NCBI GenBank assembly: GCA_036768485.1
Contig: JAVLUZ010000150.1
Coordinates: forward strand, 1,750,164-1,814,163
Direction: 5' to 3'
Origin: Mermis nigrescens
Taxonomy: Eukaryota > Nematoda > Enoplea > Mermithida > Mermithidae
DNA length: 64,000 nt
Shown here: in pieces, positions 1-21,121 of the stretch
Layout of the letters: every line of letters begins with the position of its first letter
Numbering within the stretch: the stretch's first letter is position 1
The notes under the pieces: generated by a model
What the model saw: the letters and a program-made list of their open reading frames with translations, nothing else
What the model was told of the DNA's origin: nothing
Databases searched by the model: none
Made by a program: the position numbers and the translations under genes

Positions 1-5
1 ATTCG

Positions 6-1380
6 ATGACTGGTTTTGCATTGCAAACCATTCATTTTGACGCTTGGAACGTGCAACTGGTTTTAAATCAAATAAAAGGCTCTTTTTCTATTGGTCAAAA
101 TGGACTCTGTCATTTTTTCTTGAAAAAACCTTCAAATTATCTTGCTGAGCCTTTATCTAGTATTTTTAATGTTTCATTTTTGACTAGCACTATCCCCAAT
201 TTATGGAAATTGGCAAATGTAACCCCAGTCTTTAAAAAAGGTGATGCAGCTTTAGTGAGAAATTACAGGCCGATTTCTATTTGCTGCTCATCAAGTAAAA
301 TCATGGAAAATTTGATAAATTCAAGAATTGTCGATTTTCTCACTACAAACAGACTCTTATCTCCTTCTCAGTTTGGTTTTCTGAAATCTAAATCTTGTGA
401 ATTCCAACTACTTAAATGTAAACACAGTTGGACGGTATCTTTGAGTAATAGAACTCCAGTCGATGTTGCTTACATTGACTTTTCTGAAGCTTTTGATAAA
501 ATTCCCTTTTCTAAGCTTTTATATAAGCTCTCTAAATATGGAATAAAAGGTCTACTTTTTAGTTGGCTCAAATCCTTTTTACATGGTCGATTTCGGCGTG
601 TTTGTATTAACGGAGTTTTTTCTGACTTCTTGCCTGTTGGCAGTGGTGTCCCCCAAGGTAGTTGTATTAGCCCTACTTTATTCTTAATCTATGTAAAATT
701 TACTTCTTTGCCGATGATGTCAAAATCTTTGGTCCATCTTCTGATAATCATTTAATACAAAAAGATCTGAACAATATTTATATTTGGTCTATAAATTGGC
801 AACTTCCTGTTGCTTCGGAAAAATGTGCAGTTTTACATTTGGTAAAAATAATCCAAAAAAGCTTTATTCTTTGAATAATATAAATATTCTAAATGATGTT
901 AGTTCCGTTCGTGATGTGGGTGTTTATATTTCACACAATCTCAATTGTAAGGAACATTTAAATCACATAATTAAAAAAGCTGTTTCTCGTTGTTTTCTAA
1001 TACACAAAGCTTTTCTTTCTCGTGATAAAGATATTTTAGTTAGGGCCTATACTACTTATGGAAGACCTATGCTTGAGTATGCTGTTTCTTTATGGAATCC
1101 ATATTATGCAAATGATCGTCTTGAAAATGTTCAGCGTAAATTTACTAAACGTCTTTTTGGTTTTAATAGCAATTTATCCTACCTCGAACGCCTAAAGCTT
1201 CTTAACCTGCCTTCTTTAGAACTTCGTCATCTTCACATATATCTATGTCTCATGTATCAAATTATTAATGGTTTATCCTGTATTTATGTAAATGAATTTT
1301 TCATTTTTAGTCAAGGCACTACCAGATCAGTTAACAACAGTCGTAAACTTACGTTACCACTTGTCCGTTCCAATGCTCAC
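6..1380 (+). pseudogene. Non-LTR retrotransposon (CR1/Jockey-type LINE) reverse transcriptase, broken
   Basis: Reverse transcriptase domain of a LINE ORF2, running in from the left window edge. Visible motifs are NYRPISI, the palm block AYIDFSEAFDKIP, and SGVPQGS followed by SPTLF. The catalytic FADD box lies in a different frame at 704-718, so a small deletion or frameshift occurred near 690. A third frame (784-1380) carries the thumb and C-terminal part (RAYTTYGRPMLEYA, then LWNPYY), as in CR1/Jockey proteins. The frame order 0, 2, 1 shows at least two indels. The reading frame is then interrupted at 1380 by a hAT-like insertion and resumes at 3182. No endonuclease domain is in the window. 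Family call is from motifs; CR1 versus Jockey is not resolved. Confidence 0.88.
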
Positions 1381-3173: not shown

Positions 3174-3181
3174 ATGCTAAC

Positions 3182-3420
3182 CTCAACGATTTTTCGCAGA
3201 GATACCGAAAAATCTGGAACTCCTAACCTAATCAAATAGTCTCTACTCATAAAATCCATTTGTTCAAAAAGAGCTCCTAAACATTGATTTTACAAATTTA
3301 TTGTTGGGGCATACCTGAGTTGTATCACTTCCGTGATCTTTGTATGTCCTTTGTTCAGTCACTATTTTATCATGTATTTGCGTTTTATCAAATTTCGTGT
3401 ATTTTTCTGACAATAAACAC
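3182..3420 (+). pseudogene. LINE ORF2 C-terminal end and 3' tail
   Basis: Continues the LINE frame that stops at 1380. The translation includes DFSQRYRKIWNS and then KIHLFKK, matching the usual C-terminal tail of CR1/Jockey ORF2 (a W-N-S-L-P block followed by an F-K block), with a stop in the block. AATAAA near 3411 could be the 3' processing signal. The right edge of the element is not sharply defined. Confidence 0.6.
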
Positions 3421-4101
3421 TTTTCTTGTCTAAAATCGATCGTTATTGCGAGCGACTGCCACATATATGTTTGTATCTCTCTTCAATGCTCAGACATTAC
3501 CAGGTTTTAATCAAAAAATGCACTGGCTCTCAAAAAAATATTAGGAAATACGGATGCAATATCAAGCTCGTAACCATTTTTCTATAAAATTTAATTGCAC
3601 ACTTGCAAGTATGTTTAGAAATGATCGAATATAGATTTTGATAAAATATTCATACACTGCTTTGTAATTGACACAAGGACATATATGTGACTGTAATTTT
3701 ACCCAGCTACTCTATAGCATCCACTTCCTCTTCATCACAATCTGCTCAAATTCTGCTGACATGGAATCGCAAAGCTGCAGTGCATTAGTCTATTTGAAAA
3801 AATGGCACCGTGAAGATAAAAAACCCAAAAAAACCAAAAAACCAGAACGCAATGACTTTTGCACCCAAGAAACCCACAAAAAACCATAAAAAAAGCCCAG
3901 ATTCGAAAAACCCAGCCCTTGCCAACACTGGTGTAAATAATAAGACGAGGGAATGGAATATCCATTGTCAGTGAAAAGATCGAAAATAGGAAATTTTTAA
4001 TTTTCCGTTTTTCCGGCGATTTTCCTTCTTGGCCTTGGATGCGTATGTTCAATGAAAGATATCAAAATATCCACGACACACATGGGCACAGGGGTGGGCA
4101 C
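3421..4101. other. No gene seen; A-rich tract and possible hAT terminus
   Basis: No convincing coding sequence. An A/C-rich tract lies at about 3818-3905. CAACACTG at about 3923-3930, read in reverse as CAGTGTTGGCAAGG, looks like a hAT terminus similar to that at 1381, but I could not find its partner or a TSD. Confidence 0.4.
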
Positions 4102-4379
4102 CACACCTGGGCGTGGGGGGTTTGGGGGGGGGTATGCACCCCCCCCAGAAACCGAAATACCTCCCCCCAGAAATCAAAATACCCCCCCCCCCAGAATTCA
4201 ATTTTTGAAAATTTTTTTCGTTTTTTTCGCAATTTTTTGATGCCAATGGATAGTGCTTGATGAGAAACGTCGAAAAATGGTGTTTTTATCGCCATACCAC
4301 CATTTTTAAGGCCATTTTTCGATCTTCGAAAAAATCTTGCACACCCCCCCCCCCAGCATTTTCTTGCTGCCCACGTATG
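4102..4379 (+). mobile_element. MITE-1 copy (hAT-type, 278 bp)
   Basis: Starts CACACCTGGGCGTGG and ends CCCACGTATG, giving short imperfect inverted ends of the form CA...TGGGC. It is flanked by a perfect 8-bp direct repeat GTGGGCAC (4094-4101 and 4380-4387). The body carries C-tracts before AGAAAT or AGAATT, and the block GAGAAACGTCGAAAAATGG that is diagnostic of the family. Open frames on both strands arise from low-complexity sequence and are not genes. Confidence 0.92.
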
Positions 4380-5716
4380 GTGGGCACTGGACTGGATACA
4401 GTGGATCGGTAAACGGCTATGCATGCACACATAGGCATAGCTGTGCACAGTACCACCAAGCATTGGGTGTATACCTTACAGTGAATCAATAGACAATTTA
4501 TTTGTACTAACAGTAAAACTTTCATTTCTTTTGAGCAATATTTATACCAATAACAAATAAACTGCTCGTCCGCCCTCCACAATCGTCCTTGTAAAATCAT
4601 TTTTTACGCAAGTTTTCCGAGATGTTCCTGAACATCAGGACAAACCTCAAGTCCTGTAGGTTTGCTTTACGTCACAACGTGCTCAAATTCCAAATGGTCC
4701 ATTTGTACCTGCTAGTTTGTGACTGTAATATTTTTTCACTGTTTAAACGGCATCTTCAATTATGTTCGCATGGCGGCTGAATAATTTGACTTCTTGATGT
4801 TTGAAGTGCTTTGCTTAGCATGCAGCGTGTCTAGCAAACTGTGATAGCAATCTAAACCCTAAAATATTCTGCTACAGTAATCAGCCGTAAAGCAAAAATG
4901 GGCCGTCCGAAATGGAACAGACTATAGTCAACAAAATGATTTGGCCGTCTAATCCATCTAAGAGCCGGTTTAGATTGCTCGCTCAACCAGATCTTTCTTA
5001 TGTACATGCAGCGCTAGCAACAGCGCGAGCTGCTTGCGGAATTGAACAACTGACGAAACACTTGTCATATAGTGCATAACAGTCATAATGTAAGATGTTA
5101 ATAAACGGTTATTTGAAAGGCATAAATCATTGAAGCTAAGCTAACATATGCATTTATTGTATGCTCTTTTGTTAAAACATTTTCGTAACATTTGAGTAAG
5201 CGTAAAATATTATATATACGTAAATTTTGCACTATTACATGTATGCATATCTACATTCAAACATGCAAGTATTGCAAATTATTTCCGCCGCATATAACGA
5301 TCGTCGAAGTAGTGTAACATAAATAATTATATATGTAAATCTGAACACAGTAAGTTTTGGAGGCGTGCCCAACTGACGAATAAGGATCGGCGATAGCGAA
5401 TGGATAGAACTGTGGATAGTAGACGCGGCAAGTGAAGAGGAGGAGCGAGGAGATTGAGTGAAGAAACGGCGAGGAGAAAGGGAGAGTTGTGTGAAAATCG
5501 TGCTGCATCCGTTCGTTTTTGATTGTATAATTTTTGCCCCTGCACATTAAAAAGTTCGAGTTAGCTTGTCAATACATATACGCAGGCAGGAAGGGTTGCC
5601 ACAGTCCCAGCGACTGAATGAAACTGAATTAGCTAATCAGCTAAAGCTTACGGACTTTAATAAGCTGTTTTTCGTGTTTATATAATTTACGGGGCAGATT
5701 TGTAATCGTAAACGAC
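4380..5716. other. No gene seen; possible 5' LTR or leader of the following gag element
   Basis: AT-rich sequence without a convincing ORF. TTTTGGAGGCGTGCCCAAC at about 5354 resembles a tRNA primer-binding site, which would put a 5' LTR end just upstream. No second LTR copy is in the window to test this. Confidence 0.3.
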
Positions 5717-5777
5717 ATGGCGAGCGCGCCCATTGATGAATCAGATGGACTTTCCGTGGCAAAATCACAAAGCAACA
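5717..5777 (+). CDS. Candidate short first coding exon upstream of gag
   Basis: ATG in a good context (GACATGG) starts a 20-codon frame beginning MASAPIDESDGL, directly followed by a strong splice donor (CA|GTAAGT at 5778). Unspliced, the frame ends seven codons later. A plausible acceptor (ATTTCAAAAAG) lies near 5970, just before coding-like sequence that leads into gag. Either the gag starts with a spliced exon, which is unusual for a Gypsy-type element, or this is chance. Transcript evidence would decide. Confidence 0.3.
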
Positions 5778-6037
5778 GTAAGTTTCTTGTTCGCATTTAA
5801 GCACAACATCGCATACATACATACATAGCACAAATTAAAATAACATTTTTCGCATTTAACTAGACATACATATATATATGTACACGCAAGTTAGAGGATC
5901 GTATCAATAAAAGTTATAATCGGCATTTTGCAAATCAAAAATTGGCAAAATTCGACAGAAGAAAATTTCAAAAAGTTCAGAATCACTTTCGGACCAGTTT
6001 AAGCGTATTGAATTTGAATCTATAGCAGAAATTTTAA

Positions 6038-7564
6038 AACATTCGCGTACAAGCATGCCACACACTGATCGTAACAGCAAGTGAACTTGAACGTATAATT
6101 ACAGATACTTTGCATACAGTAATCGGAGATCAACTAAGAGACGTTCAAGCAAATAACTCTCTCTTAGATGATCTCAGAGCTTCGAATTTGAGAAACAATA
6201 TAGGTTTAGCTATCCGCCCTCCAAGACCTTTTTCAGGAGGGGTAGGAGAGAATTTCACGGACTGGTTGCATAAATTTGAGCAGTATTTATCGTTGCAAGG
6301 TTTTAGAGACAACGATTCACATTTAAAGCTAGCATGTCTCAAATCATTTTTGAGCGGCACAGCTCTCGCCACTTTCGAAGATTTAAAATATCTTCAAAAT
6401 CCGCCTAACACATATGATGCATGTAAAACATTACTTAAAACGCATTTTCCTGATAATCGTGACAGTGATGTCCAGCAGCAATCGCTTATGGAACGTAAGC
6501 AAAAACGTTCCGAATCTGTATCTGAATTTTTGTCTGAACTGAGACGGTTAGCACGCCTTGCATATCCTGATTTAGATCAAAGAGCAAAAGACACTATAAT
6601 TAAGCCTTTGTTTTTACGCGGCATGTTAGGTGACGTTCGCGAAGCTATTAAGTTTCGGGAATTCGCTAATTTAAATGAGGCACTCAAAGCTGCAACATAC
6701 ATTGAATCACAGATTTTGAGAGATGAGATGTCTCAATCGCATTTTTCTACGCATCCCAAAAGCGAATCTGTTTTTCACGTTTCGTCACATTCGAATATCG
6801 AAAATTCAATCGAAAAATTGGCTAAGCAAGTTGAGTTACTAACATCTATCACATTGAATAAGGCAGAAACGAAAAGTGATAGCGTAGGATTTTCACAGCA
6901 TAGTGTACCTTATTTTAACACGAATTCGCGTAATAACAGACAGTTTAGTGCAGCTCATACGCCAAGCAAAAGTTTTTGTCAGATTTGTAATCGTAATAAT
7001 CACACTACACGTGACTGTAGGGCAAAGTGTCGATATTGTGCACAAACAGGGCACAAATCAGACTCTTGCCGGCGGAAACCGCCAGAAATTTTTTGCTATA
7101 AGTGCAATCAATCAGGCCATACAGTACAAATGTGCCGCAATCAGCAAACATTTACTCAAAACACACGTTCACACAATAACAGTCAAAGAGGTGGTAGAGT
7201 AAACAGTGTAGATGCAGATGATCTGCATTTAGAAATGCAGAATGAATCAGTACGTAATTCACACATTGTTGCACAAATTAATTCTACAGACGACGCAGTT
7301 CCGAAGAATAATCCGAACAGCGATTACGTTCTTACGGTAGATTTTTCGGATATATCTGAGCAAAGCACGGATAGCTATGATTCGACTTTCGACCAAGATT
7401 CGCCGCGATCCCGCGTCTCAGTCCGACTCGGACCGAGATTATCGTCGGTTGACGAATCATTACGACGGAGTTACATCGCCATCTCCCTCTCCAACAGCAA
7501 CGATTCGTCAGAGTCCCGTCGTCACGCCACCTATTCCGTCGGCGCCAATCCAATGCCGAAGTGA
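6038..7564 (+). CDS. Gag polyprotein of a truncated Ty3/Gypsy-type LTR element
   Basis: The frame is open from 6038; it is counted here from a TTG at 6110 because no ATG opens it, giving 484 residues. Residues 35-205 form a typical retrotransposon Gag capsid region, beginning PPRPFSGGVGENFTDW and running through a long helical stretch. Three CCHC zinc knuckles follow (C-x2-C-x4-H-x4-C) at residues 290-303, 307-320 and 329-342, then a Ser/Asp-rich tail. These proteins build the capsid and bind the element's RNA. The N terminus is unclear: coding-like sequence just upstream (5970-6090) is in another frame. No pol follows, because the next element begins at 7844. The frame itself is intact. Confidence 0.85.
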   Translation, partial: NIRVQACHTLIVTASELERIITDTLHTVIGDQLRDVQANNSLLDDLRASNLRNNIGLAIRPPRPFSGGVGENFTDWLHKFEQYLSLQGFRDNDSHLKLACLKSFLSGTALATFEDLKYLQNPPNTYDACKTLLKTHFPDNRDSDVQQQSLMERKQKRSESVSEFLSELRRLARLAYPDLDQRAKDTIIKPLFLRGMLGDVREAIKFREFANLNEALKAATYIESQILRDEMSQSHFSTHPKSESVFHVSSHSNIENSIEKLAKQVELLTSITLNKAETKSDSVGFSQHSVPYFNTNSRNNRQFSAAHTPSKSFCQICNRNNHTTRDCRAKCRYCAQTGHKSDSCRRKPPEIFCYKCNQSGHTVQMCRNQQTFTQNTRSHNNSQRGGRVNSVDADDLHLEMQNESVRNSHIVAQINSTDDAVPKNNPNSDYVLTVDFSDISEQSTDSYDSTFDQDSPRSRVSVRLGPRLSSVDESLRRSYIAISLSNSNDSSESRRHATYSVGANPMPK

Positions 7565-7843
7565 CGCCCTTCTTGCGTTACCTCCAGACCCGAGCCTCAA
7601 ACCGCCATTGTTTCTGAGCAGCTGCGTCCCTGGGCGCCTATCCCGCGGCAAAATATTACTCCCGACGCCCTCACATTCTCCACAATCGTTTTTTCCCAAG
7701 CCAAAAACGTTGAACAATCGCCTGGGTAAGGAACATGTCAAGTTTTCCTTACATAATTCGTTTACTCTTTGCATGCTCATGTTTGCAATCCTCATTTCGT
7801 ATGCAAAAACATATCAAGTCTGCCAAAAATATAGGGTGGTCAT
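7377..7843 (+). CDS. Overlapping Pro-rich ORF with hydrophobic segment, truncated by the LTR
   Basis: A second frame overlaps the gag 3' end and runs past it until the LTR of the next element begins at 7844. It is rich in Ser/Pro, then has a hydrophobic stretch FTLCMLMFAILISYA followed by a cysteine, resembling a secretory signal. That arrangement (overlapping the gag 3' end, then a signal-like segment) parallels the envelope-like gene after gag in the element at 7844-19158. Too little remains to prove it is an envelope N terminus; it may be a chance overlap. Confidence 0.35.
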
Positions 7844-8040
7844 TGTAAGAATTGGGACGATGATATAACGTTGCGACGTCGTGTGATATAGTAAACTTTC
7901 ATGTAGTGTTAGGTACATAGTTTAAGTACTCCGCCCTTTATGTAACGTATACGAATTTAGATTGACACACCTACCAGCTAAGCTATATAAGCATACTTCT
8001 CTCTATTAAAATGGTTAGTCTCCATCTTACGGTACTTACA
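7844..8040 (+). repeat. 5' LTR
   Basis: Begins TGTAAGAATTGGGACG and ends GGTACTTACA, so its ends are short inverted repeats (TGTAAG/CTTACA). Compared with the 3' LTR it shows one substitution and three short indels (2, 1 and 1 bp). It holds TATATAA at 7984-7990 and ATTAAA at 8005-8010. Confidence 0.95.
7984..7990 (+). promoter_or_regulatory. TATA box of the 5' LTR promoter
   Basis: TATATAA within the LTR, repeated as TATATAAAA at 19098-19106 in the 3' LTR. The position is consistent with a pol II start just downstream; the start site itself is inferred. Confidence 0.6.
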
Positions 8041-8043
8041 AAA

Positions 8044-8061
8044 TGGGGTGCAACAGTCTGG
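8044..8061 (+). promoter_or_regulatory. Putative primer-binding site
   Basis: TGGGGTGCAACAG begins three bases after the 5' LTR. It starts with TGG, as expected for pairing to a tRNA 3' CCA end. I did not identify the tRNA. Confidence 0.45.
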
Positions 8062-8249
8062 AAAGAACCGCTCTCGCAGTATACTGTACTTTATTGGCTA
8101 ACCCTGCGAGCCCCATAGTTGTGCTATATTTATTTTGAGACGAGAATTTCGAAGCTACAATTTTTATTATGTAGCTAGCCCCCGATAGCAGACGTTAGAC
8201 TTTGGACTGTCAGTCTGGAAGCTGAGAGTTGTTCCAGCTTCTTTCCCCC

Positions 8250-8444
8250 ATGTGTGCGATGTGCACAAAATTTTGCTGCTGTTTATGTTGTTTACCACTT
8301 TTGGTGGTCTGTCTGCTGATTTTGTTAATAAGTATCTGTCTGGGTTTCAGCTTTTTGGGATTAGTTTCCGCAGCTGCTAAAATAATTGCTAAAATCGTGA
8401 ATCTTCTGTATTCCGTGCTAGCTTCATTAGTGAAAAAGGAGTAA
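8250..8444 (+). CDS. Small hydrophobic leader ORF
   Basis: About 65 residues from the ATG at 8250 (an upstream non-ATG start at 8229 extends it). A Cys-rich start (TKFCCCLCCLP) is followed by a long hydrophobic stretch LLVVCLLILLISICLGFSFL and a Lys-terminated helix-like tail, so the product would be membrane-embedded. It lies in the leader shortly after the 5' LTR. Could be a small membrane protein or chance; no family recognised. Confidence 0.3.
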   Translation: MCAMCTKFCCCLCCLPLLVVCLLILLISICLGFSFLGLVSAAAKIIAKIVNLLYSVLASLVKKE

Positions 8445-8447
8445 ACA

Positions 8448-9307
8448 TGTTGTTTTGGTTTTGGGGAACCAAATGGCATTTGTACTTTACGCGGAAGACG
8501 TATTGCGGTACTGTATTTGATGTTTGTCAGCTTCTTGTTTGCTTCCTTCTAGCATGTATAGAGTATGCAAGTTTTAATTATCTGAGAGACAGCTGTAGGG
8601 CAACCTCAGGACAAATATGGTTAATGGGTGATAGTGCAATTTTGGATTGAAAAGGGCTGCTAATGAGAAATTTGATAGTGTCCAGACAGTCCCGAAAAAT
8701 AATTATTTTTGCTGACCCACAGAAAATAATAAGCTTGCGGCTTGATTGGGGCCCAAATTTGCACTACGACTCATTAGAATGAGCTTAATACTGCCCGGCC
8801 AGATATTACTAAGACGTGTTTACATCTAATGCTCGAGCAAAATGATGATGAACTGGCCCATTATCGGAAAAAGTTGCTTCTATGAGTAGTGCAAATGTAC
8901 ATGTAGGTTATAGGTTAAGCGTTAGCGCGGTAAAGAAGCGCGTGTATAGAATGTACACATATTATTAATATTACTCTTTTGTAGCTGCAATATAGCTAAC
9001 CGTGTAAGCTGGAACAGCCGCAATGCATATTACGTTTATAATATGTTTCGGGTCGGGTTGCCTGATCGGAATATTGGCGAGGATAAAAAGCTCAACGTTG
9101 AGTTAATGTCATCCAGTGACATTACAGTAACCCAACCGACCCAGCTAACCGCGTGCTAACCTATTGTAAGCGTTAGGGCAGCGCCGCTCGTTTTTCTTGC
9201 GTCTCGTTATTATCGTTTGTTAATCAATCCACAGTCAGTTCGTTTCTCCGAAAAAAAACCTCACCGTTTTCTCACAATCATTTTTCTCTACAATTTCCGT
9301 ATGCATC
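8448..9307. other. Leader sequence, no convincing gene
   Basis: A short Cys/Trp-rich frame starts at 8447, but nothing marks it as a gene. The 9180-9300 part is pyrimidine-rich and precedes the leader ORF. Confidence 0.4.
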
Positions 9308-10015
9308 ATGGATTCCGCCCAACATCAACTCGCTTTGGATCGGCTCACCACCTATATTTCGACCCTGCGTCAGCGTTACACCACTTGGACCGGCCAAGGT
9401 TTTGAGGAGTCCGTTTTTCGTCACAATATCGTTACACCAATCGGCAAATTCGTCACCGAATCCGCCCGAGACCAAATGTTCACCTACGGTTGGGCTATCA
9501 GCGACCAACCGCAGGAGTATTTTGACAGCTATATTTGGAATACCCTCATCGAGGATGGAATACCCGTCCACTGGGCCGTAACCAGTCTGTACGGCATGTT
9601 TACGCCCAGCGCCCAGGTACAGTGGAGTTCATTTGACGAAGACGCCCTCGTATTCATCATCGACGAGGCCCACGTCAAGGCTTGAACCAACGACGATTCC
9701 GACGTCCTGGAAATCGAGTCAACTATCGACCTCAGCAACGAGTCCAACAACGACGAGGATCCCAACGATCATGGCGACCATTTTGGTGAAGCGGAATGCA
9801 ACGGAAACAACGACCAAGGAAAAGGTAAAATTCGAAGCATTGGGAGCCATGAAGACGCCCCATTTTTGGCAACCACTGCGTTGGAAAACGCCAAAAAAAT
9901 GGAGGGCGAAAATCTCGATTGGTCAAAGTTGGCCACTTGGGATCGTTTCGCTCGGTTTTCGCCCATTTCCGACACCGATTCTTACGATGGGCTGTTTCCG
10001 AATCCGGAAGCCTAG
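9308..10015 (+). pseudogene. Leader ORF upstream of gag, 235 codons with one in-frame TGA
   Basis: ATG in strong context (ATCATGGATT) opens a 125-codon frame starting MDSAQHQLALDRLTTY. A single TGA (9683-9685) interrupts it, and the same frame runs on for about 109 codons to TAG at 10013-10015. The first part is mixed and rich in aromatics; the second is strongly acidic (many Asp, Glu, Asn), then ends WDRFARFSPISDTDSYDG. Local GC is higher than the surroundings, as in coding DNA. I recognise no family. It lies between the 5' LTR and gag, where Gypsy-type elements normally have no gene. The TGA may be a decay mutation or a readthrough site. An inserted cellular gene copy is an alternative. Confidence 0.55.
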
Positions 10016-11720
10016 TCAACGCTGACAGCGAAATCGGATTGTATATGCAAATAATCGGAATTATGGCGCTCTCTAATCGTGAGAAATACCAAGTTTCCGT
10101 TTTCAATCACGCTTAAAGCTTATTTCGCTCTTCCTTTAAACTTTTTCTTTGATAATGTAAGACAACGCGGTTACGGCGTTTAAAATCGTAAATGACATAG
10201 ACTTTTCGCTTTTTTTATACCGAAACCTTTCATTTTAACGTTTACTTCGCTTATTTGAACTTTTTCTTTGATAATTCAAAGTGAGATTATATAAATGCGA
10301 AGCATATGGCGATTTCCTACTACGAATAAAATATTTAGATTTGACTTATTGCATGTCTGACCGCGTCTATATCCAAGTTATACTTCAAATTATTGGTTCT
10401 ACCCTTAATCAGGGTTTTCAAAAAGAAAAATATATGCTGAGCGCTTAAAATTAGATATAAAAAGTACGCAATTTTTGTATCTAATTGCAGTTTCAAAGCA
10501 TATTTGACTTTAATTAAGTTTGCAGAATTTCTTCGCTATTTAACTATGCGAATTTCGAATTTAGCAACATCTAGTTCGAATTATATTGCTAAATTTTCGT
10601 TTTATGCAATGTTAAAAATTCTGCACCGCCACACACATCTAATTTTATGTTTTGCATGTCTGGCAAGCGAAATCCGACGTTTTTGCGATTACATATTGTG
10701 CATAAAAGAAATCGTGGATTTCTTAATTTTATGCCTGGAATTCTAGCTAAAAGCAGAAAAATAAATTGAAACTGATTAGCGATAAAAATGATTAACGATG
10801 ATTAACAAACATTTTAAAATTAAAATTCTAATTAGAGAGCATCTTGAAATTGAATTCGATATGACGATTCAATTAATTTATAGCACAATATAAAGTCTTT
10901 GCGAGCGAACTTCGTCTACGCGCTTCATAGTTGTCCCTAGCTAATTTATTAAGCTTGAATATTAGCGCGTCCTGTTTTTATTAGCTAAGCCGGTAAAGCA
11001 ACTATGTGTCCAGCAGCATTTTACATGGATAAAGCGTATTTATATACGTCTATTTTTGGGGGACAATATCAAAAATGATCACCGAGTTTTAAAAACCAAA
11101 AGAAATAGTTTTTGGTTGTTTTGCAACCCTATTTTTGCAGCTGTCGGATTATAGAGAGAAATATTCTGTCAACAGATTTTCATGAAAAATATTATATTCT
11201 CATGACAGATAGTTTGCAGTTTAACTATAACTGCTCAACGTTTGAACATTTTCTTTATTTTCGTCCACGATACTGATTTTCGAAATTACAAGGGAAAGCG
11301 TTCTCCAAAATTGTTCAATCAGTAATAAAGTTGAATTTTTGTGCACTGCCTGCCACCCTGTTGCCCTACCCTCACTATGCTGTCTCAGGTTATGCATACT
11401 CGTTTATAAAGAACTAATTGTTCTTTCTTTTAGCTGACATTTACCGCTTAATCAATTTTAACATATTGATTGATCGGTTATTTATGCGTAAAAACCAACA
11501 AGTGCTAAATATATAGCTTATTCATGCGAATTCAAGCTCAACATACGCATAATACTATGAGGCGTACATGAAATAATTCGTTTTTCCCACATATCTTGAA
11601 CACAATTTGAAAGTTATTATTTCCAAAACCTAAATTTCTGAGCTACAAATTTTGCAACTTGAAAATTTCATTAAAATTATCAACAATAAACCAAAGGATA
11701 AAATAAAATTATTCGGTTAA
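10016..11720. other. AT-rich leader, no gene seen
   Basis: Long AT-rich segment between the leader ORF and gag. An 80-codon frame at 10504-10746 has no recognisable features. ACTTTTTCTTTGATAAT occurs twice (about 10140 and 10259), hinting at a degenerate local duplication. Confidence 0.4.
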
Positions 11721-13094
11721 ATGCCAAAAAGAGGCTCTAGTACCAGTAGCATACGTAATACAAATTCTATGGAACGTATGCGGCAGCAGTTTGACAAACT
11801 GCAAATAACTGTGCGCCAGCAGCAAAGCCAACTAGACGATATCCAACCTTCATCCACCCCAGCACATACTTCAAGCTTAGGGACCGCCGGGGGAACCGAA
11901 TTTTTCTTTGGGCGGTCAGATGAAAACTTTGATATCTGGACTGACCGTTTTGGTCGTATTGCACTTGCTAATGGGTGGGATGAAAGAAAAAAACGATTAT
12001 TGCTACCTACTTTTCTACGTGGTTTTGCTGAAGTTGCTTATTCAACCATCCCTGATGCAACGCAAACAGACTTAACCTACGCCCAACTTGTAGATATTTT
12101 ACGCAAACGTTTTGTTTCAACCGACAATTCGGAAATCAAAGCGTTGCAGCTACACAGTAGACGTCAGGGACCAAGAGAATCAGTTACTCGATACGCCTTG
12201 GACTTGCAACAATTAGCAATTCAGGCGTACCCAAACATAGCCGCAGACACACTTGACGCTCTAACTCGCAGATTTTTCATTGATGGTTTAAATCATACAC
12301 TTTGGCGTTTTGTTTCAGATAAAAAACCATCTACTTTTCATGAAGCCGAAATGTATGCTCGGCAAGCCGAGATGCAACAAGATCTCAAAACTCAATGACG
12401 CCCAGATGGCAGTTTATACGCTATAGAAAGGAGGGGAGCAACCCCAGGTTCCAGGACAGTGGAAAAAGGAACACCGAGGGAGGTGGAAACCCCAAGGGCC
12501 GCGACCCCCACCTGCCATCTGGACAGCAAAACCTCAGAGCCGATGTTTTTCGTGTGGCCAATTGGGCCATTTTCAGCGTAACTGTCCGAAGTTACGTCAC
12601 CAAAATTGGCAACCCCGGGGCATGACACCCCGAGCGGGAGTACAAAAAGGTAGTAATTCTAACATAGCTCGTGTAAATAATTCATTTTATCAGCAGCCTC
12701 AAGTAAATCGTCCAAAAGTCGCCAGAGTCGACCGATTTGACGTGTAAATAATCGCTTTTCGGCTGTGAGGCGCGTAAATGCAGTAAATGAGCGCCCAAGC
12801 CAGGGGATGGAGCCCCAGGTTGATACTCCCGATGAAAATGAGTGGTATGAGGTGGATGATGACGAGAGTAGGAGCGATTGGCGACCACAGCGCCCTCGTG
12901 TGGTTTGCCTTGTGGATAAGGGACCCACGAAAGCGGGTGACGTTTCATCCAATGCCGATATTATTTGCGCTGTGCAGAGTAGAGGTAAGCAGCCCGGAGG
13001 TAAGCAGGTCAGAATTCTATGGGCTCCCTCTTCTGGCGCCCAAAGCAAGCTGGACGAGCTTTCTTGCTTTGTTGTTTCATTCTGGATACTATAA
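11721..13094 (+). pseudogene. Gag of the 7844-19158 element, broken
   Basis: Starts MPKRGSSTSSIRN. Residues about 60-225 form a Ty3-type Gag capsid region (FFFGRSDENFDIWTDRF, then VDILRKRFV). The frame ends at TGA 12396-12398. Gag-like sequence continues in another frame, where a TAG (12424-12426) also occurs before one CCHC zinc knuckle, CFSCGQLGHFQRNC (12544-12585). It shifts again near 12744 into an acidic C-terminal region (ENEWYEVDDDE) that ends at 13094. So there are two frameshifts and one internal stop. The 3' part overlaps the envelope-like frame. A conventional Gag role is inferred from the knuckle and capsid region. Confidence 0.85.
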
Positions 13095-14960
13095 GTGCGC
13101 CTTATTTTTGATTTTGTGCTCTGTGTGGGCGATGTACAATTTTACTTTTCCAGGATCTGCTGCTTTTCAGCTTTGTGAACCGCAGATCACAGGTGCATAT
13201 TTTTCCTTACCTAAGAATATGTCGTGTCGTATCCCCATTGAAGGTAAGGTTACACATTTTTATGCAAAGTTATGGACTCCTAATCTTGCAGCCCATTTGA
13301 CCCGCGCATATAAATGTGTTGCTAATACACACACAATTTGTACTAATACAGGCTTTTTAGGGTCACGAGGTATTGTTCGGGATTCCCATGGCTCGGATCC
13401 CATTTCAAAACATCGCTGTGAATGAATGATAAAGTCAGAATATTACCGTGGTCATTGATTATATAACGTAAAACCTCGTTTATGGCGAACTAATGTAACT
13501 TTAACTGTTACTTATCGTTATTGTTGTAAGGACGTGTGTGAAACAGCTGAAAATGCTTTAATACGAGAGGGACAAGTAGCTACTTATGACGGTGTACATA
13601 TACTTTCTAATTTGGGAGATGTTTCAGCGTGTAAACCGGAATCTGGTCAGTGTGTTTTGGATGATTCCATAATTATCTGGGAACCAACTGATATCAAAGC
13701 ACCCTGTCCCTTTTCTACGAATGGCCACAATTTATTACTAGTTCAACATTTGGGACCTTATTACGTCATAGAGGAACTCCAGGAGGCATTTACAATGGTT
13801 CGTCACAGACCCCCGCCTAAAAACAGTTGTTTACCCCCTTTTATACTTTATATGGATCAGGGTATATTTTTACAACTGTTTGATGCTGCAGGTTTTCAGA
13901 TAGCCCAGCCACACGAGCAGCCACCCATATCGCCGCGAAATACACGGGAAGATGTGACACCAGAGACTATTGAAGTACCCTAGATGTTTGTCGAACTGAA
14001 CAATCGACTTCAATTTTTGGAAGCATCGATCAGAAATTGGGAATCGACACGGTTTAATCAAATCTGGACCCAGATTTGTCGTCTGGCCGATGCTCAACTT
14101 CAAATCGTTCGTCAGTTGTTACGCCTGGATCCAACGCTAGCTGCACGTTTGTGGCTGCGCCGACAGGATGTGGCGGCTCGTATGGCTGGGGAGGTTCTTT
14201 TAGTCTGGCCCTGTGTTCAGCTTAAACCAGATGTAATTTTTGGAATTATCGTGTGGCCGATAATTGTTATGCCATGTTACCTATTGTTGTAAATGAGTCT
14301 GTATACTTTAATTTATCAGGTTCTGAAGATGTTGTTACACAGGCACCTAAGATGCCATGTTTCGATCTGCCAGTAGGCGTTCATTACGAGAACGCTACCC
14401 ACCAGTGGATAAGCCCCCGAGGCGTTGTAGACGTCAAACCGCTGTTGCAACGCCTCAACATGTCACTAGCTACCCAAAGCCCGGTCGTTTTTGATGCACC
14501 CTTGCTACTTAAGGAAATTGGTCGACATCCACCGTTCCAAACTTTGTTGGAGTTGACCACACTCGAAACCTGGCGCCTGCAACGACAGATGCAACAATTG
14601 GTCAAATTTACTTCTACGTTGCACATCGACCCCGCTCAATTCCGCCAGACCCTACGCGACATTGGCGATGGAGTAAAGGATATTAATGGTCTGACAGTTT
14701 CACATTTGCAGACCGCGGTAAGTGGCTTATTTTCAGGAACTGGACACGTTTTATCCCCTTTTGGTGGCGGACTTATGCATAATATCACTAATGCGTTGTT
14801 TTGGGCTATTTTTACTATCTTTGTGATTTATCTAGGCTTTTTAGCAATTCGATATGGTTGGTGCTGCGTGTGGTGCCAATGGGGTTGTGGTTCTGTGGCA
14901 CTGCTTTGCCAATGGATCACATCCTTGTGCCCCGTGCATGCGGGCAAACTGGCCAGCTAA
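13060..14960 (+). pseudogene. Envelope-like glycoprotein gene (class III, gB-like pattern), broken
   Basis: A signal-like hydrophobic stretch (CALFLILCSVWAMYNF, about 13096) opens a Cys-rich ectodomain. A distinctive block at about 14128-14217 (LDPTLAAR, RRQDVAARMAGEV, then a Val-rich strand ending in Cys) follows the pattern of glycoprotein B-like class III fusion proteins, the group from which the envelopes of Ascaris Tas and chuvirus-derived elements come. The last frame (14253-14960) has five N-glycosylation sequons, a Gly-rich membrane-proximal segment, a transmembrane span ALFWAIFTIFVIYLGF (residues 181-196) and a Cys-rich tail. Breaks: TGA 13423-13425, TGA 13456-13458, TAG 13981-13983 and a frameshift near 14245. 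It lies between gag and pol, not after integrase. The start codon is unclear; a spliced mRNA is likely. The gB assignment is by pattern only. Confidence 0.72.
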
Positions 14961-14980
14961 CGCGTCTTTCATGGCAGGCT

Positions 14981-15391
14981 ATGACTAGACACCAGCAGCG
15001 GCAGCAAGCGCCAGCTGTTCTTTATCACCGAGCCCGCAGCCGCACGCCTATCTACGCTGTTCATTCCCCAGGAGTATTACGTGTTTGCCGCCCCCATGTT
15101 TATGTGCACTTTTCGACCGGCCATTGGATTGTAGCCTTGATCGATGGTGGAGCAACCCTGACGATCATGGACCATGCTGCTTATCAGCAGCTTGGAATGG
15201 ACAAACCGCTCAAACCATCGACCCGTCAATCTGCTGCGTCAGTCACTGGACATGCGATTCCGTCACTTGGCGAGTTTACAGCAAACGTTCGAATAGGCAT
15301 CCAAAAATTGTCAGTAACATTTCTTATTATGCATAACAGCCCTTACTCTATTTTAATTGGTTATGACACAATTGTTAAACTTTGTGGTTAA
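14981..15391 (+). pseudogene. Pol: retropepsin-like aspartic protease
   Basis: Pol is open in this frame across the envelope 3' end; the first sensible ATG is 14981. The protease motif reads ALIDGGATLTIMD with the active-site triad at 15143-15151. The usual D-T/S-G is D-G-G here, one base change from D-S-G, which should abolish or weaken activity. A downstream hydrophobic-Gly motif (SILIGYD) fits the second half of the fold. The frame ends at TAA 15389-15391; the same frame then continues into RT, so this is an internal stop. The protease would cut Gag and Pol. Confidence 0.85.
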
Positions 15392-17270
15392 AATCCGCGT
15401 ATAATAATTGACCACGAGCAGCAGTACATAAAATTCGGTCAAAACCAACCAGTTTCACTAATTTCATGTAACGAATTATTAGCAGATGCAAAAACTGAGG
15501 AAAAACAAACTATTTATGCTACAGTTCGAGAAACTGTTTTAATTCCGCCTGTTTCGATTTACTCGTTACCTATTGTAGCTGATGTATCTCAGCTGAACGA
15601 AGATTGGATTAACATTGCAAAATGCAACGATTTATCATCTTTGTACGTACCTAATGTGCGTTTACACTTAAACAAATGCAATTTACCTGCAATACCTATC
15701 ATAAATTACACAAAGCAGCCTGTTCGTTTATATAAAGACACAAAAATTGCAGCTGTCTCCGTTTTTCCTACCCCACACTCGAATTTAAAAAGGGAGGGAA
15801 ACAATAATGACGAGTTTACACTTTTTTGCGAAATGATCCAACAGAAAACGGCACATATTTCAGACCCTTTTGTACAAAACCAGTTTAATGCGTTTTTACA
15901 AGTTAATGCAGGTGTTTTTGGCATGGGTCGACCCTTGGGTAGAACGTCGATTGTTCAACATGGAATCGATACTGGTGATCACCGACCAATTTCCCAGCCA
16001 CCTTATCGAGTGCCATATGCCAAACGTCAAATTGTGGAAGAGCATGTGAATCGCATGCTCGATGCTGGGATCATTCGCCCATCTCAAAGTCCGTGGGCAG
16101 CCCCAATAGTGTTGGTGGACAAGAAAGATGGCACAAAGCGTTTTTGTGTGGACTACCGTAAGTTAAATGAGTGTACAGTTAAGCACGCTTATCCTCTTCC
16201 TTTAATTGATGATATTTTTAGCCAGCTGCGTGGATCAACTATTTTTAGTACCCTAGACTTGGAGCAAGGATATCACCAAGTTGAGGTAGCTGAAAGTGAT
16301 AAATGTAAAACCGCGTTTAACTCTTTTCTAGGTTTATTCGAGTTCAATGTTATGCCTTTCGGGCTGACTAATGGCCCAGCGACTTTTCAGCGGACCATGG
16401 AGCAAGTCCTGCGTGATTTGAAGTGGCGTCGCTGCTTCGTATATCTGGACGACATCCTGGTCTGTGGAACCGAACCAAAGTCGCACATTGTACAATTGCA
16501 GCAAGTTTTCGATCGCCTAACCCAAGCCGGTTTAACCCTGAAGCTAAAGAAATGCGAATTTGGCCTAACTGAGGTCAACTATTTGGGACACGTTATAGAT
16601 AGAAAAGGACTTCGTGTCAACCCTGCTAAGGTTGACGCGCTGGTCAAAATGCCAGCGCCTAAATCTGTCTCAGAAGTTCGTAGCTTCTTGGGCTTATCTA
16701 ATTATTATAGACGTTTTATAGATCATTTTGCAGATAAAACGTTCTTTTTAAATAAGTTACTGCGTAAAGGTGTTGCATTTAACTGGACTAAAGAATGTCA
16801 GCAAAGTTTTCAAAATGTTAAAGATGATTTAGCTCGAGCTGTAACTTTAGTATTTCCCGACTTTTTGCAGCCGTTTTTGGTTCAAACAGATGCCAGTGGA
16901 ACCGGGATTGGAGGTGTGCTGGCCCAAGCAGTCAATGGTCAAGAGCAACCAATCGCCTTTGTTTCACGTTCACTGAACAAAGCCGAACGCAACTACTCCA
17001 CAATTGAAAAAGAAGCCTTGGCCATTGTTTGGACAATTAAGCAATTTCTGCCCCTACTTGTATGGACACCGCTTCACGCTGCTTACGGACCACGCCCCAA
17101 TACGTCTGTTGAAGATCCATGATGCTTCACCTTCCCGATTAGTCAGGTGGGTTCTTTCCTTGCAGGAGTATGATTACAATATAGTTTTTAGGAAAGGCCG
17201 AGAAAATGCTAATGCTGACGCTCTGTCTCGTTTGGCGATCAACTCTTCAATGGAAACGCCAGAAGAAGTT
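15392..17270 (+). pseudogene. Pol: reverse transcriptase and RNase H
   Basis: After the TAA the frame continues through a linker into a complete Gypsy-type RT: SPWAAPIVLVDKKDG, FCVDYRKLN, STLDLEQGYHQ, MPFGLTNGPATFQ and the catalytic YLDD (16442-16453). RNase H follows with TDASGTGIGGVLAQ and the EKEALAIVW segment. A one-base insertion near 17047 shifts the frame; the RNase H tail, including LLTDHAPI and NANADALSR, is read in the next frame. RT copies element RNA into DNA and RNase H removes the RNA strand. All catalytic residues I can see are present; the stop and the frameshift disable the full polyprotein. Confidence 0.93.
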
Positions 17271-18723
17271 GATTCTGTGGAGCTAAACCGGAATGGAGCC
17301 AAAAACCCGGTTGAAATTATGCATACAAACACTGTACCTATGTGTATGACTAATGTATCTAAGTTTTGTGCCAGTGTACATAAAAATGATGTTTGTGCAT
17401 TGCAACTGCCATATAATTTACGTTTAATGCAAAGACGTGATGTGTTTTTGGGTCCAGTATTTCGTTTACTACAAAATCGTAGATTTTTAAGGAATATAAC
17501 CCCTGACCAATGGAACCTGGTGGACGATTTTGTATTGGACAATGGGATGCTGAAGTACCAAAACAACCCCAACCGGGAGCCCGTTTTGGCCATCCCACGC
17601 CGCCTGGTTCCAGTGGTATTGCGCGCCTTGCATAATGATGCAACGTCTGGGACATTTGGCGTTTTGTCGGACATGGGAAAAGGCCCGGGAACGCTACTTT
17701 TGGCCAGGACAACGCGCCGATGTTTGGAAACATTGCCGCGAATGCCTCCCATGTCAACGCCGCCGACCCGTAACTCAGCATCTGCCAGTGCAGCCCCTTT
17801 GCCCGATTCCTGTGGCGGCTGCATTGGAACACTGGGTCATGGATACGATGGGACCACTCCCCCAAACTGTATGTGGGTGTACTAATATTCTAGTTTTTAT
17901 AGATCGAACGACCAAATGGGCAGAAACTGTGGCCGTTCGTGACATAAGAGCAACCACAGTTGCTGCACACTTTGTGGAGCGCATTGTTTTGCGTTTTGGC
18001 GCCCCCAAAGTTGTGCAGTCCGACCGTGGCACTGGTTTTGTGGCCGCCGTCTTCCAGGAGGTCTGCCGACTATATGAGGTTCGTCACATAACGTCAACCC
18101 CATATTGTCCGCAGACGAATGGCCTGGTGGAACGTTTCAATCGGACCCTCCAAACCATGCTGGCCACGTGTATCCAAGAGCGCGAAGATCAATGGGACCA
18201 AAGCCTGCCCAGCGTCACCTTCGCCTACAACACCACTTGGCAGTCTAGCACCAGATATTCGCCTTTTTATCTGGTCTATGGTCGCCAAGCAAAGCTTCCA
18301 CTTGACCAAGCATTGGAAGCTGATGGTGTCCTGGGTGATGGACCACAACCCCCGTTGATCCAGGAGATCCATCGTAACCTTCGCTTGGCCCGCCTATTGG
18401 CCACCGAAGCCGCTCGAAACGCTCAACAACAGCAAAAACGTCAATATGATCGACGAAATAGAGTGGAAAATGACCAACCGGAATATCGAGTTGGTCAATT
18501 AGTTCTGATGCGTAACGCTCGAGCAACGTCGAAATTCCATCAACGTTGGCTAGGACCATATCGATTGCAACGTCTTAGCACGCCGAATGCCATCATCCGT
18601 GAACTCGGCGCCCGTCGACGACTCCGAACGGTACATTTGAACCAACTTCGACCGTTCAAAGGCGAGCGACGCGAAATGCTTGATGATGCCGACACTCTTA
18701 GTGAAGGCAGCATTGAGTATTAG
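17271..18723 (+). pseudogene. Pol: integrase
   Basis: An N-terminal HHCC zinc-binding region ends in CRECLPC (about 17736). A one-base insertion near 17651 moves it into the frame of the catalytic core. The core has D at 17842-17844 (WVMDTMG), D at 18022-18024 (QSDRGTGF) and E at 18130-18132 (VERFNRT), with exactly 35 residues between the last two, the D,D-35-E signature. The C terminus has the Gypsy GPY/F-like segment RWLGPYRLQRL and ends at TAG 18721-18723. It inserts the cDNA into the genome. Nothing follows it before the 3' LTR: there is no env in the usual place. Confidence 0.93.
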
Positions 18724-18945
18724 CCTATCAACTTTGTAAGACCGGAGATTGTAACCCAAAAACGCCGCCCGGATTGTCCGACAACCAGGTACCGCCCAGT
18801 TCTGTGCTAATTTATAATTGCCGCCCGGAAAATAACGTTTTAGACCAAAATACGCTTCAACCCATATTTTGATGTTTTCACATACCGGCGAAAATCAGCC
18901 GATTGCTCTTTGTTAAGGATTCTTTACCCATGAACGTTCCTTCTT

Positions 18946-18957
18946 AAAAGGGGAGAA
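18946..18957 (+). promoter_or_regulatory. Polypurine tract
   Basis: AAAAGGGGAGAA immediately before the 3' LTR, the expected plus-strand primer. Confidence 0.85.
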
Positions 18958-19158
18958 TGTAAGAATTGGGACGATGATATAACGTTGCGACGTCGTGTGA
19001 TATAGTAAACTTTCATGTAGTGTTAGGTACATAGTTTAAGTACTCCGCCCTTTATGTAACGTATACGAATTTAGATTGACACACCTACCAGCTAACCTAT
19101 ATAAAAGCATACTTCTCTCTATTAAAATGGTTAGCTCTCCATCTTACCGGTACTTACA
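18958..19158 (+). repeat. 3' LTR
   Basis: Same sequence as 7844-8040 apart from one substitution and 4 bp of indels. It ends CCGGTACTTACA and abuts the minisatellite with no recognisable TSD. Confidence 0.95.
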
Positions 19159-20210
19159 TGTACATGGTGTGCACAGCACACTGTGCAAGCGGAGTGAGCA
19201 CATATATAGTGCATGAAGCATACCTTGTGAGGAAAGCAAGCACACACATGGTGCGCAAAGCACACTCTGCCAGCAAAGCGAGCACAGACATGATGCACAA
19301 AGCGCACCAAATGAGCAAAGCAAGCATGTACAGGGTGTGTGAAGCGCACATTGCATTTGCAAGCAAAGCAAGCACTAAGATGGTGCACAAAGCACACCAT
19401 GTGAGCTGAGCGAGCGCGCATATGGTGTGCAGAGTGCACCATGCAAGCATAGTGAGTAGAGCAAGTGCATATGTGGTGGGCGAAGTGCACCATGCGAGCA
19501 TAGCTAGCAAGTATATGGTGCACAAAGCGCACATTGTGAGCAAAGCAAGCACTTAGATGGTGCACAAAGCACACCATGCGAGCGGAGTGAGCTCGCATAT
19601 GGTGCGCAGAGCGCACCATGCAAGCATAGTGAGTAGAATGAGCGCATATATGGTGCGCAAAGTGCACCATGCAAGCATAGCAAGCGAGTATATGCTGCGC
19701 TAAGCGCACCATGCAAGCAGAGCAAGCATTTATATTGTGCGCAAAGTGCACCATGCAAGCATAGCGAGTATGTACATGTTTTACAAAGCACACCTTGCAA
19801 GCAGAGTGAGCGCGTATATGGTGTGCAAAGTGCACAATGTGAGCAGAGCAGGTGCGTATAGCTCTGCAGAGTGCACCGTGCAAGCAAAGTGGCGTGTATA
19901 TGGTGCGCAAAGCGCACCATGGGAGCAGAGCGAGCACATACATGGTGCACAAAGTGCACCATGCGAGTGAAGCAAGCGCTTACAAGGTGCGCACAGCACA
20001 CATTGCAAGCAAAGCAAGCGCTTAGATGTTCCGCAAAGCACACCATGCGAGTAGAGCAAGTGCGTATATGGTGCGCAGAGTGCACCATGCGAGCATAGTA
20101 AGTGGAGCGTGCGAGTATATGGTGTGTGAAGTGCGCCATGTAAGCATAGTGAGTGAGTATATGGTGTGCAAAGCGCACCATGCTATTGGAGCTAGCCTGT
20201 CGAGCTCATA
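19159..20210. repeat. 42-bp minisatellite, about 25 units
   Basis: Units look like ATGGTGCGCAAAGTGCACC followed by ATGCGAGCAAAGCAAGCGC and a short variable end, period 42 bp with some shorter or longer units. Each has an inverted repeat (GGTGCGC...GCGCACC), so a single strand could form a hairpin per unit. Since 42 is divisible by three, long repetitive frames appear on both strands; these are not genes. Confidence 0.92.
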
Positions 20211-20487
20211 TAATTGCAAATAATTGCACCATTGAGTAAGGCAGCTGGAATCAGTACAAAGCGCGGTGCAGCTGCGCTTTTTTATTTCCCTCAAAGCATG
20301 TGTGATTCCTAACAACACAACACGTTTTCTTATTTTGTTTATAAATTTCTGAATTTTCATCCAATTTTGACAAAAATTTTTGGTTTTGTAGATAATTTTA
20401 CAGCCTTCTCTGTGAGCGAAGCAAACAAACCAGAGGTTAGCGCAGCTGACTTTTAAACTGTATTTTAGGTTAGTAGGTACCAAAATT
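20211..20487. other. No gene seen
   Basis: Unique-looking sequence between the minisatellite and the segmental duplication. Confidence 0.4.
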
Positions 20488-21121
20488 GTACTTTTCTCCT
20501 ACTTACTATGCCCGATTTTTCTTTGGACCTTGTTTTCGGGTGGCTGAGTAGATGGTTGTCTGTGTTTTTTTATCATCGCCTAAGCCCATTAGTTTTTATC
20601 CTTTTATTCTATCTCCCAACCGTCCCTACTCTTCAAAGTAAAGGTCACAATTGAATGAAAATTTAAAATTTTCTTCAAAAGTGCTGGAAATAGAAAAAAA
20701 TAAAACTGTGGAATACCGTTGTTTTAACGCTATTTGAGCATTTATATAACTTTTTGAGGTCTTAACCTCGAAAAAAGCACAATTTTTGACCCCCGCACCA
20801 CTAGATCGGCCATGCTATGCATCTGTGCCTATGAATGTCTTGTCAAGGACTTTGTTTCAACAACGGGACCAGAATGTCCTTTTCTTGGAATTTTATATAC
20901 TTTGAAGAAAAAATGAAAAGCAAAACGTATGACTTAGCATATTTTCGCATTACGTAGCAATTCAATAAATCAGAAGCACAAACGAACAATGTCCTAAATT
21001 TATGAGAAGCAAAACAATTCTGAATGACCAAAACATGGTAAGGTGTTATTTTTTTAAAATTCCTCTTCTTAAATAGACTGCGATAAAAACAAATATTTTG
21101 AATGAATTTTTGGGTGCTAGC

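What the first reader, a model, noticed from the sequence alone, without database searches (positions are those of the whole stretch)
11721..18723. LTR element with an envelope-like gene between gag and pol
The order read directly is gag (11721-13094), envelope-like gene with signal segment, sequons and C-terminal transmembrane span (13060-14960), then protease-RT-RNase H-integrase (14981-18723). Nothing lies between integrase and the 3' LTR, where retroviruses and errantiviruses keep env. There is only one LTR pair, so a nested second element does not explain it. From memory I know no Ty3/Gypsy lineage with this order, but I cannot search. The envelope shows the block pattern of glycoprotein B-like class III fusogens.
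Basis: partly seen in the sequence, partly recalled or inferred. Interest (0 to 1): 0.88.

Follow-up and report, generated by a model that had tools for sequence, protein, structure and literature searches.

The report
Retroelement with envelope between gag and pol
This invertebrate genome carries a family of virus-like jumping elements whose membrane-fusion envelope gene sits inside the main reading frame, between the shell gene and the copying enzymes; that layout has one published precedent, in flatworms, and suggests that all parts may be made as one protein chain.

Summary
The reading holds. The window has a Ty3/Gypsy-type LTR element (LTRs 7844-8040, 18958-19158) ordered gag, envelope glycoprotein, protease, RT, RNase H, integrase; only a polypurine tract and LTR follow. 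This copy is decayed over several frames. The order is no local rearrangement: of the 76 best RT loci scored in this genome (window copy included), 63 have the envelope upstream on the same strand, none downstream; in 15 of the 63, envelope and RT report the same open frame. One subfamily has gag-envelope-protease in one frame and RT in the -1 frame, with an A-run in the overlap. [quoted passage not shown] The envelope passes Pfam Monjiviricetes_fusion (kin of bornavirus G and herpes gB) in 4 of 4 open-frame relatives and is under purifying selection like RT. The claim that no such lineage is known is wrong: planarian Burro giants have env in frame between gag and pol (PMC6431247). This is a compact version in a host whose mitochondrial code is not the flatworm one. 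Best reading: one Gag-Env-Pol chain threaded through the membrane; its translation is inferred. No fold model; host phylum unknown.

The parts
7844..8040 (+). 5' LTR, TGTAAG...CTTACA
   Evidence: blastn self-match to 18958-19158; ends and identity
8044..8061 (+). candidate primer binding site (starts TGG, 3 nt after the LTR)
   Evidence: read in sequence; tRNA not identified
8250..8444 (+). leader ORF 1, 64 aa, Cys-rich hydrophobic; possible accessory gene
   Evidence: no Pfam match; identical in the C91 copy; genome search for it did not complete
9308..9685 (+). leader ORF 2, 125 aa; same frame continues open 9686-10012 after the stop
   Evidence: longest M-ORF of the leader on the + strand, reached in 5 of 300 two-base-block shuffles; no Pfam match; no relative in the other fetched loci except the C91 twin
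11721..13094 (+). gag: capsid (Retrotrans_gag), CCHC knuckle; in three frame segments 11721-12398, 12427-12747, 12741-13094
13060..14960 (+). envelope glycoprotein: signal/hydrophobic segment, Cys-rich ectodomain, C-terminal transmembrane span; in four segments (frame 1 to 14292, then frame 0)
   Evidence: PF24664 5.3e-6, PF00606 2.9e-5 on 13984-14289; relatives
14792..15391 (+). protease segment (protease match about 15116-15376); overlaps the envelope C-terminus in another frame
   Evidence: PF13975 1.4e-5 (26 bits, cut-off 28.2), PF09668 1.1e-4
15392..17122 (+). reverse transcriptase and start of RNase H
16977..17885 (+). rest of RNase H and linker, other frame
17554..18723 (+). integrase (H2C2 zinc-binding, rve core, C-terminal region)
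18946..18957 (+). polypurine tract next to the 3' LTR
   Evidence: read in sequence
18958..19158 (+). 3' LTR

Best explanation
A decayed copy of a Ty3/Gypsy-type endogenous retrovirus lineage that captured a fusion glycoprotein of the Monjiviricetes type (bornavirus/chuvirus-like, with the gB pattern; class III by sequence) and keeps it in frame between gag and protease. Shown: order, family matches, shared open frames in relatives, purifying selection. Inferred: the genomic RNA is translated as one Gag-Env-Pro-Pol chain. Gag is made in the cytosol; an internal signal segment then inserts the chain into the ER; the ectodomain goes into the lumen, where signal peptidase and furin-like enzymes cut it; the C-terminal span stops transfer; protease, RT and integrase follow back in the cytosol, where the protease frees Gag and enzymes. 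In one subfamily a -1 frameshift after protease would lower RT output. Env would be carried on particles and give cell-to-cell or host-to-host spread.
For: Of 76 RT loci (window copy included) 63 have the envelope upstream, 0 downstream; 15 of the 63 report the same open-frame length for envelope and RT, 1507-2302 aa. Unaltered frames run through gag, envelope and protease in L037, L043, L044 and L045. The envelopes of these four exceed PF24664's cut-off (44.2, 43.7, 39.2, 48.9 bits against 27); 20 invariant Cys, an N-terminal hydrophobic segment in 3 of 4 by my threshold, a C-terminal span in 4 of 4, a KQKR/KTRR/KTKR site at the same place in 3 of 4. P0121: PF24664, protease (below cut-off), RT, RNase H and integrase in one 1838-aa chain from another assembly. 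Subfamily with frames 1386/1066 aa: in L043 RT is -1 to gag-env-protease, with A AAA AAA in the right phase in the overlap. dN/dS of envelope 0.07-0.18 (11 C-half pairs) and 0.08-0.22 (4 N-half pairs), RT 0.07-0.17 (15 pairs). No shared donor/acceptor pair round the envelope: seven stretches scanned, of which four span it.
Against: No transcript, ribosome or peptide data. A 1:1:1 output of Gag, Env and Pol would be unusual for a particle-forming element. In 48 of 63 loci envelope and RT do not report one frame, through decay or a frame change. The sequence after the slippery stretch folds no better than shuffles (z 0.23). Two structure predictions failed (mean pLDDT 33.6 and 36.3), so class III rests on sequence profiles. 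A Met near the signal in most envelopes read (by eye) and strong donor-like sites in gag of single copies (L045, L035) leave spliced or internally started Env open.
Confidence: 0.6

Rival explanations
1. Same element, but env is a retained in-frame intron or is made from its own spliced message: splicing gives Gag-Pol from one RNA and Env from another, and the long frame is only kept open for unspliced RNA.
For: Retroviruses make Env from spliced RNA, and Cer1 uses conventional splice sites (PMC10309623, passages seen). Some copies have strong donors in gag (L045, L035: CAGGTAAGT). Three of four envelopes have an acceptor-like stretch at the same place just before the C-terminal span.
Against: L037 and L044 have no donor above 3.2 bits in the scanned frame; the acceptor-like stretch is what the conserved (F)SSLTGG-type peptide encodes and is not among L045's six best acceptors. 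The C81 subfamily's -1 overlap lies after protease, not at an env border. The scan used generic splice-site weights from memory, not this host's.
Confidence: 0.25
2. A local rearrangement or nested insertion put a stray envelope between gag and pol in this copy.
For: This copy is broken, its flanks carry no target-site duplication, and another Gypsy gag lies just upstream.
Against: Same order in 63 of 76 RT loci and envelope joined to pol in a protein from another assembly.
Confidence: 0.02
3. The inserted region is a non-envelope membrane protein that only resembles a fusogen by composition.
For: Structure prediction gave no usable model; two of four window pieces match nothing at E 1; a search with one isolated envelope found nothing.
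Against: PF24664 above its curated cut-off in 4 of 4 open-frame relatives and in P0121; BDV_G above cut-off in 1 of 4 and P0121, exactly at it in one more. The profile of the four finds herpes gB in 31 of 32 PDB hits up to E 10, best E 1.4e-3.
Confidence: 0.05
4. The envelope lost its entry role and now serves only intracellular assembly, for instance tethering Gag to membranes.
For: The window element and its C91 twin, both with broken gag and env, sit at different sites with near-identical LTRs, so copies can spread without their own Env (complementation assumed).
Against: Envelope keeps Cys, sequons and, in 3 of 4, a furin-like site, and is under purifying selection about as strong as RT.
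Confidence: 0.15

Closest known systems
Burro giant Gypsy-like elements of planarians (GYPSM1; PMC6431247, section 7 read)
   Same: env in frame between gag and protease; env hits fusion glycoproteins of arthropod and fish mononegaviruses; Gypsy-type pol
   Different: Burro exceeds 30 kb with a 4873-5140 aa polyprotein carrying BCL2, ankyrin, BIR, Ubi/SUMO-like and dUTPase parts; here the longest unmasked frame listed is 2302 aa, LTRs are 0.2 kb and Pfam finds no such domains in the pieces scanned. The host reads AAA as Lys and ATA as Met in COX1, unlike the flatworm code. Burro sequences were not at hand, so homology of the two envelopes is untested.
Errantivirus / Drosophila gypsy (Metaviridae)
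   Same: Ty3/Gypsy pol plus a captured viral fusogen
   Different: The ICTV profile places env downstream of integrase (PMC7879559, passages); here it is upstream of protease. That the fusogen family differs (baculovirus F-like there) is recalled, and for planarian/gypsy Env is mentioned in PMC6431247.
Anakin, BEL/Pao elements of mosquitoes with a chuvirus glycoprotein (PMC7642597, passages)
   Same: LTR element with a glycoprotein of negative-strand RNA virus origin
   Different: BEL/Pao, not Ty3/Gypsy; the phrase 'between gag' does not occur in its main text, and its exact gene order was not looked up.
Herpesvirus glycoprotein B
   Same: The profile of four envelopes aligns about 130 residues to gB (E 1.4e-3)
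   Different: Below PF00606's curated cut-off; no fold evidence.
Foamy virus Gag-Env pairing (recalled; PMC7828637 seen as search listing only)
   Same: Gag and the Env leader work together at membranes (recalled)
   Different: There the genes are separate; here they share a frame.

Membership tests
Metaviridae (Ty3/Gypsy) | pol order PR-RT-RNase H-IN with Gypsy-type RT | tested here: met
   order and Pfam; RT relatives. No tree with named reference clades was made
Metaviridae (Ty3/Gypsy) | TG...CA LTR pair with PBS and polypurine tract | tested here: met
   priming tRNA not identified
Metaviridae (Ty3/Gypsy) | short target-site duplication | tested here: not met
   0 of 2 copies, window and C91; other copies not looked at
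Errantivirus-type layout | env downstream of integrase | tested here: not met
   definition from PMC7879559
Burro | env in frame between gag and pol | tested here: met
   met in relatives (15 of 63), not in the broken window copy
Burro | giant polyprotein with BCL2, ankyrin, dUTPase and other domains | tested here: not met
   no such Pfam match in the pieces scanned; longest unmasked frame listed 2302 aa
Burro | sequence kinship of pol and env with Burro | not testable with these tools
   no Burro sequence was found in what I searched
Monjiviricetes_fusion PF24664 | score above curated cut-off | tested here: met
   4 of 4 open-frame envelopes and P0121; the window piece itself is below (25.1 against 27)
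Glycoprotein_B PF00606 | score above curated cut-off | tested here: not met
   24.1 against 43 in the window piece; 13.3 and 13.9 in two relatives
Class III fusogen | class III fold | tested here: inconclusive
   models of pLDDT 33.6 and 36.3; no fold search run
Anakin (BEL/Pao) | BEL/Pao pol | tested here: not met
   PR-RT-RNase H-IN matches the Gypsy-type Pfam models RVT_1, RT_RNaseH, RT_RNaseH_2, rve; that these separate Gypsy from BEL is recalled

The most novel reading that the evidence does not exclude
A diversified lineage of compact Ty3-type retroviruses, found outside flatworms, makes Gag, a class III envelope, protease and polymerase as a single polyprotein that threads through the ER membrane, so that capsid, fusogen and enzymes are delivered in one chain; one branch adds a -1 frameshift after protease to cut polymerase output.
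Probability: 0.45. Interest if true: 0.8.

Novelty: new variant of a known kind. Interest (0 to 1): 0.6.

Why it matters
The ICTV profile of Metaviridae places env after integrase. A lineage with env inside the gag-pol frame raises a clear question: how can one chain hold cytosolic Gag, a luminal ectodomain and cytosolic enzymes, and how is their ratio set? The only precedent I found is a short passage about one giant flatworm family. Here 63 loci with the order, several uninterrupted frames, a frameshift branch and a protein from another assembly make the layout look like a stable strategy that can be tested.

Tried and rejected
Rejected: local rearrangement; nested element (the only long off-array self-match of 10400-20500 in the window is the LTR pair); env-less sister lineage as the explanation of copies without env. 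Of the 13 RT loci without the env2 match, five were looked at: L015 and L027 do carry the envelope C-half, L009 and L010 are truncations (99.7% identical to env-bearing L012 up to one point), L014 is masked; eight were not examined, so an env-less branch among them is not excluded.

Led nowhere: isolated-envelope protein search (no hit at E 0.001 among the 8000 candidates scored); viral contig scans; two structure predictions, so no fold search was run; folding after the slippery stretch; phage-protein library; Rfam and tRNA scans of the window (0 matches); PDB comparison of COX1 did not name a phylum. Whether the leader ORFs recur in diverged copies stayed open because the genome search did not complete.

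Rows dropped: one of 77 RT matches (second piece of one locus); 5 of 155 envelope matches were not listed; in the RT tree, rows with stops, short rows and identical rows; in dN/dS, pairs with pS outside 0.03-0.70.
Full report
What is in the window. Pfam on separate pieces puts gag at 11721-13094, an envelope at 13060-14960, protease at 14792-15391, RT/RNase H at 15392-17885 and integrase at 17554-18723. A self-comparison found the LTR pair, 7844-8040 and 18958-19158, differing by one mismatch and four gap positions, with TG...CA ends, a TGG three bases after the 5' LTR and a purine run before the 3' LTR. Neither this copy nor the C91 copy shows a target-site duplication. The leader of 3.7 kb has two ORFs with no Pfam match.

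State of this copy. Gag lies in three frame segments, the envelope in four (frame 1 with stops, then frame 0), RT-RNase H-integrase in three. A second copy at G000:C91 is 99.7% identical over 7.5 kb and lies at another site. It has the same gag and envelope segments up to the equivalent of 14292; beyond that its last envelope segment and protease share a frame, and its RT frame is 965 aa. Two broken copies with near-identical LTRs imply help from intact relatives (inference).

The order is lineage-wide among the closest loci. The RT piece gave 77 matches in the 524-Mb genome (76 loci, window copy included; 76 of 4266 first-look candidates were scored, so this is the best-scoring part), and an envelope piece gave 155 (150 listed). 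Pairing them: 63 of 76 RT loci have the envelope upstream on the same strand (60 at 1.4-2.2 kb, 3 at 5.1-5.9 kb), none downstream, 13 unpaired. Of loci L001-L030 (L001 is the window copy), 27 carry envelope C-half pieces; L009, L010 and L014 do not. L009 and L010 are truncated and L014 is masked; eight unpaired loci were not examined.

One reading frame. In 15 of the 63 the two matches report the same open-frame length, 1507-2302 aa; I take equal length as the same frame. Unaltered frames from L037, L043, L044 and L045 show it directly for gag-envelope-protease: capsid, CCHC, linker, signal segment, ectodomain, span, Cys-rich tail, protease. In another subfamily seven loci report a 1386-aa envelope frame and a 1066-aa RT frame; in the one read (L043), RT is in the -1 frame, with an A7 run in -1 phase inside the overlap but no better-than-chance RNA fold after it.

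What the envelope is. Four open-frame envelopes (the other three 46-57% identical to the first) all pass PF24664 Monjiviricetes_fusion; BDV_G is passed by one (28.2 against 27), met exactly by another (27) and missed by two. Their profile finds herpes gB in 31 of 32 PDB hits up to E 10, best E 1.4e-3; these are one family, so not independent. A single envelope found no gB in the PDB. Twenty Cys columns are invariant; a KQKR/KTRR/KTKR site lies at the same place in 3 of 4. Structure prediction failed twice, so the class III assignment is by sequence only.

A record from another assembly. A region-limited search with the L043 frame gave one hit among 5965 candidates: P0121, 1838 aa, 51% identical over 91% of the region, E 1e-204, with PF24664, BDV_G, RT, RNase H and integrase above cut-off and protease below it, in one chain on a 5752-base contig. 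In the RT tree a clade of 20 distinct loci of this genome, P0121 and P0002 has support 0.999; P0121 as nearest sister only 0.664.

Selection. Among pairs not saturated, envelope dN/dS is 0.07-0.18 (C half, 11 pairs) and 0.08-0.22 (N half, 4 pairs, of which two repeat because L036 and L045 are nearly alike); RT 0.07-0.17 (15 pairs). For L017 and L025 against L027 the envelope dS is 0.51-0.63 while RT dS is 1.6-1.8, which suggests exchange of the envelope region between subfamilies.

Host. A COX1 frame in the assembly has AAA where Lys is expected (PTGIKIF), ATA where Met is expected (GMPRRY) and TGA for Trp (that these sites are invariant is recalled). This fits the invertebrate mitochondrial code and not the flatworm one; the Ser reading of its 34 AGR codons was assumed, not tested. 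I could not name the phylum.

Known or new. ICTV's profile puts env downstream of integrase (PMC7879559, passages). Anakin is a BEL/Pao element with a chuvirus glycoprotein (PMC7642597, passages). Bdelloid elements were checked by passages: their env-like ORF is an ORF3 downstream of pol (PMC5408684). Burro of planarians has env in frame between gag and pol (PMC6431247, section 7 read). Ten full-text searches showed me no other case in the titles and abstract starts listed (3 to 15 rows each, none) or in the passages opened; of the seven papers that hold the phrase 'between gag and pol', four were not opened. Subscription papers and most preprints are not held. So I know of the layout once in print; the compact form, the non-flatworm host, the many loci, the frameshift branch and the named glycoprotein family are what is added.

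Mechanism. The topology of one threaded chain follows from the order of signal, ectodomain, span and protease and is inferred. A shared splice-donor/acceptor pair was not found (seven stretches scanned, four of them spanning the envelope; generic weights from memory), which weakens but does not exclude the splicing rival.

Noticed in passing
window 6038-7564 (+): Another Gypsy-type gag (Retrotrans_gag, CCHC) ends 280 nt before the 5' LTR; no pol of it was noticed on the far side of the element, which fits rearranged flanks.
   Followed up: partly
window 43200-46519 (-): A further Gypsy-type element (gag 45893-46519, RT 43200-44189); an envelope was not searched for there.
   Followed up: partly
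window 19162-20183: Degenerate 42/84-bp tandem array begins right after the 3' LTR.
   Followed up: no
window 8250-8444 and 9308-10012 (+): Leader ORFs between 5' LTR and gag: a 64-aa Cys-rich hydrophobic one and a 125-aa one whose frame stays open for 109 aa after its stop; possible accessory genes.
   Followed up: partly
window 7844 and 19158; L031:517, L032:628: No target-site duplication in either of two near-identical copies at different sites.
   Followed up: partly
L017, L025, L027: Envelope is much less diverged than RT between these copies: likely exchange of the envelope region among subfamilies.
   Followed up: partly
L046 (G000:C61:36162539-36163888): COX1 frame open under the invertebrate mitochondrial code inside a 48.8-Mb contig: nuclear copy or assembly join.
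   Followed up: partly
window 748-1470 (+): A 240-aa open frame that looks like the end of a LINE-type reverse transcriptase by eye; no Pfam match at E 0.01.
   Followed up: no
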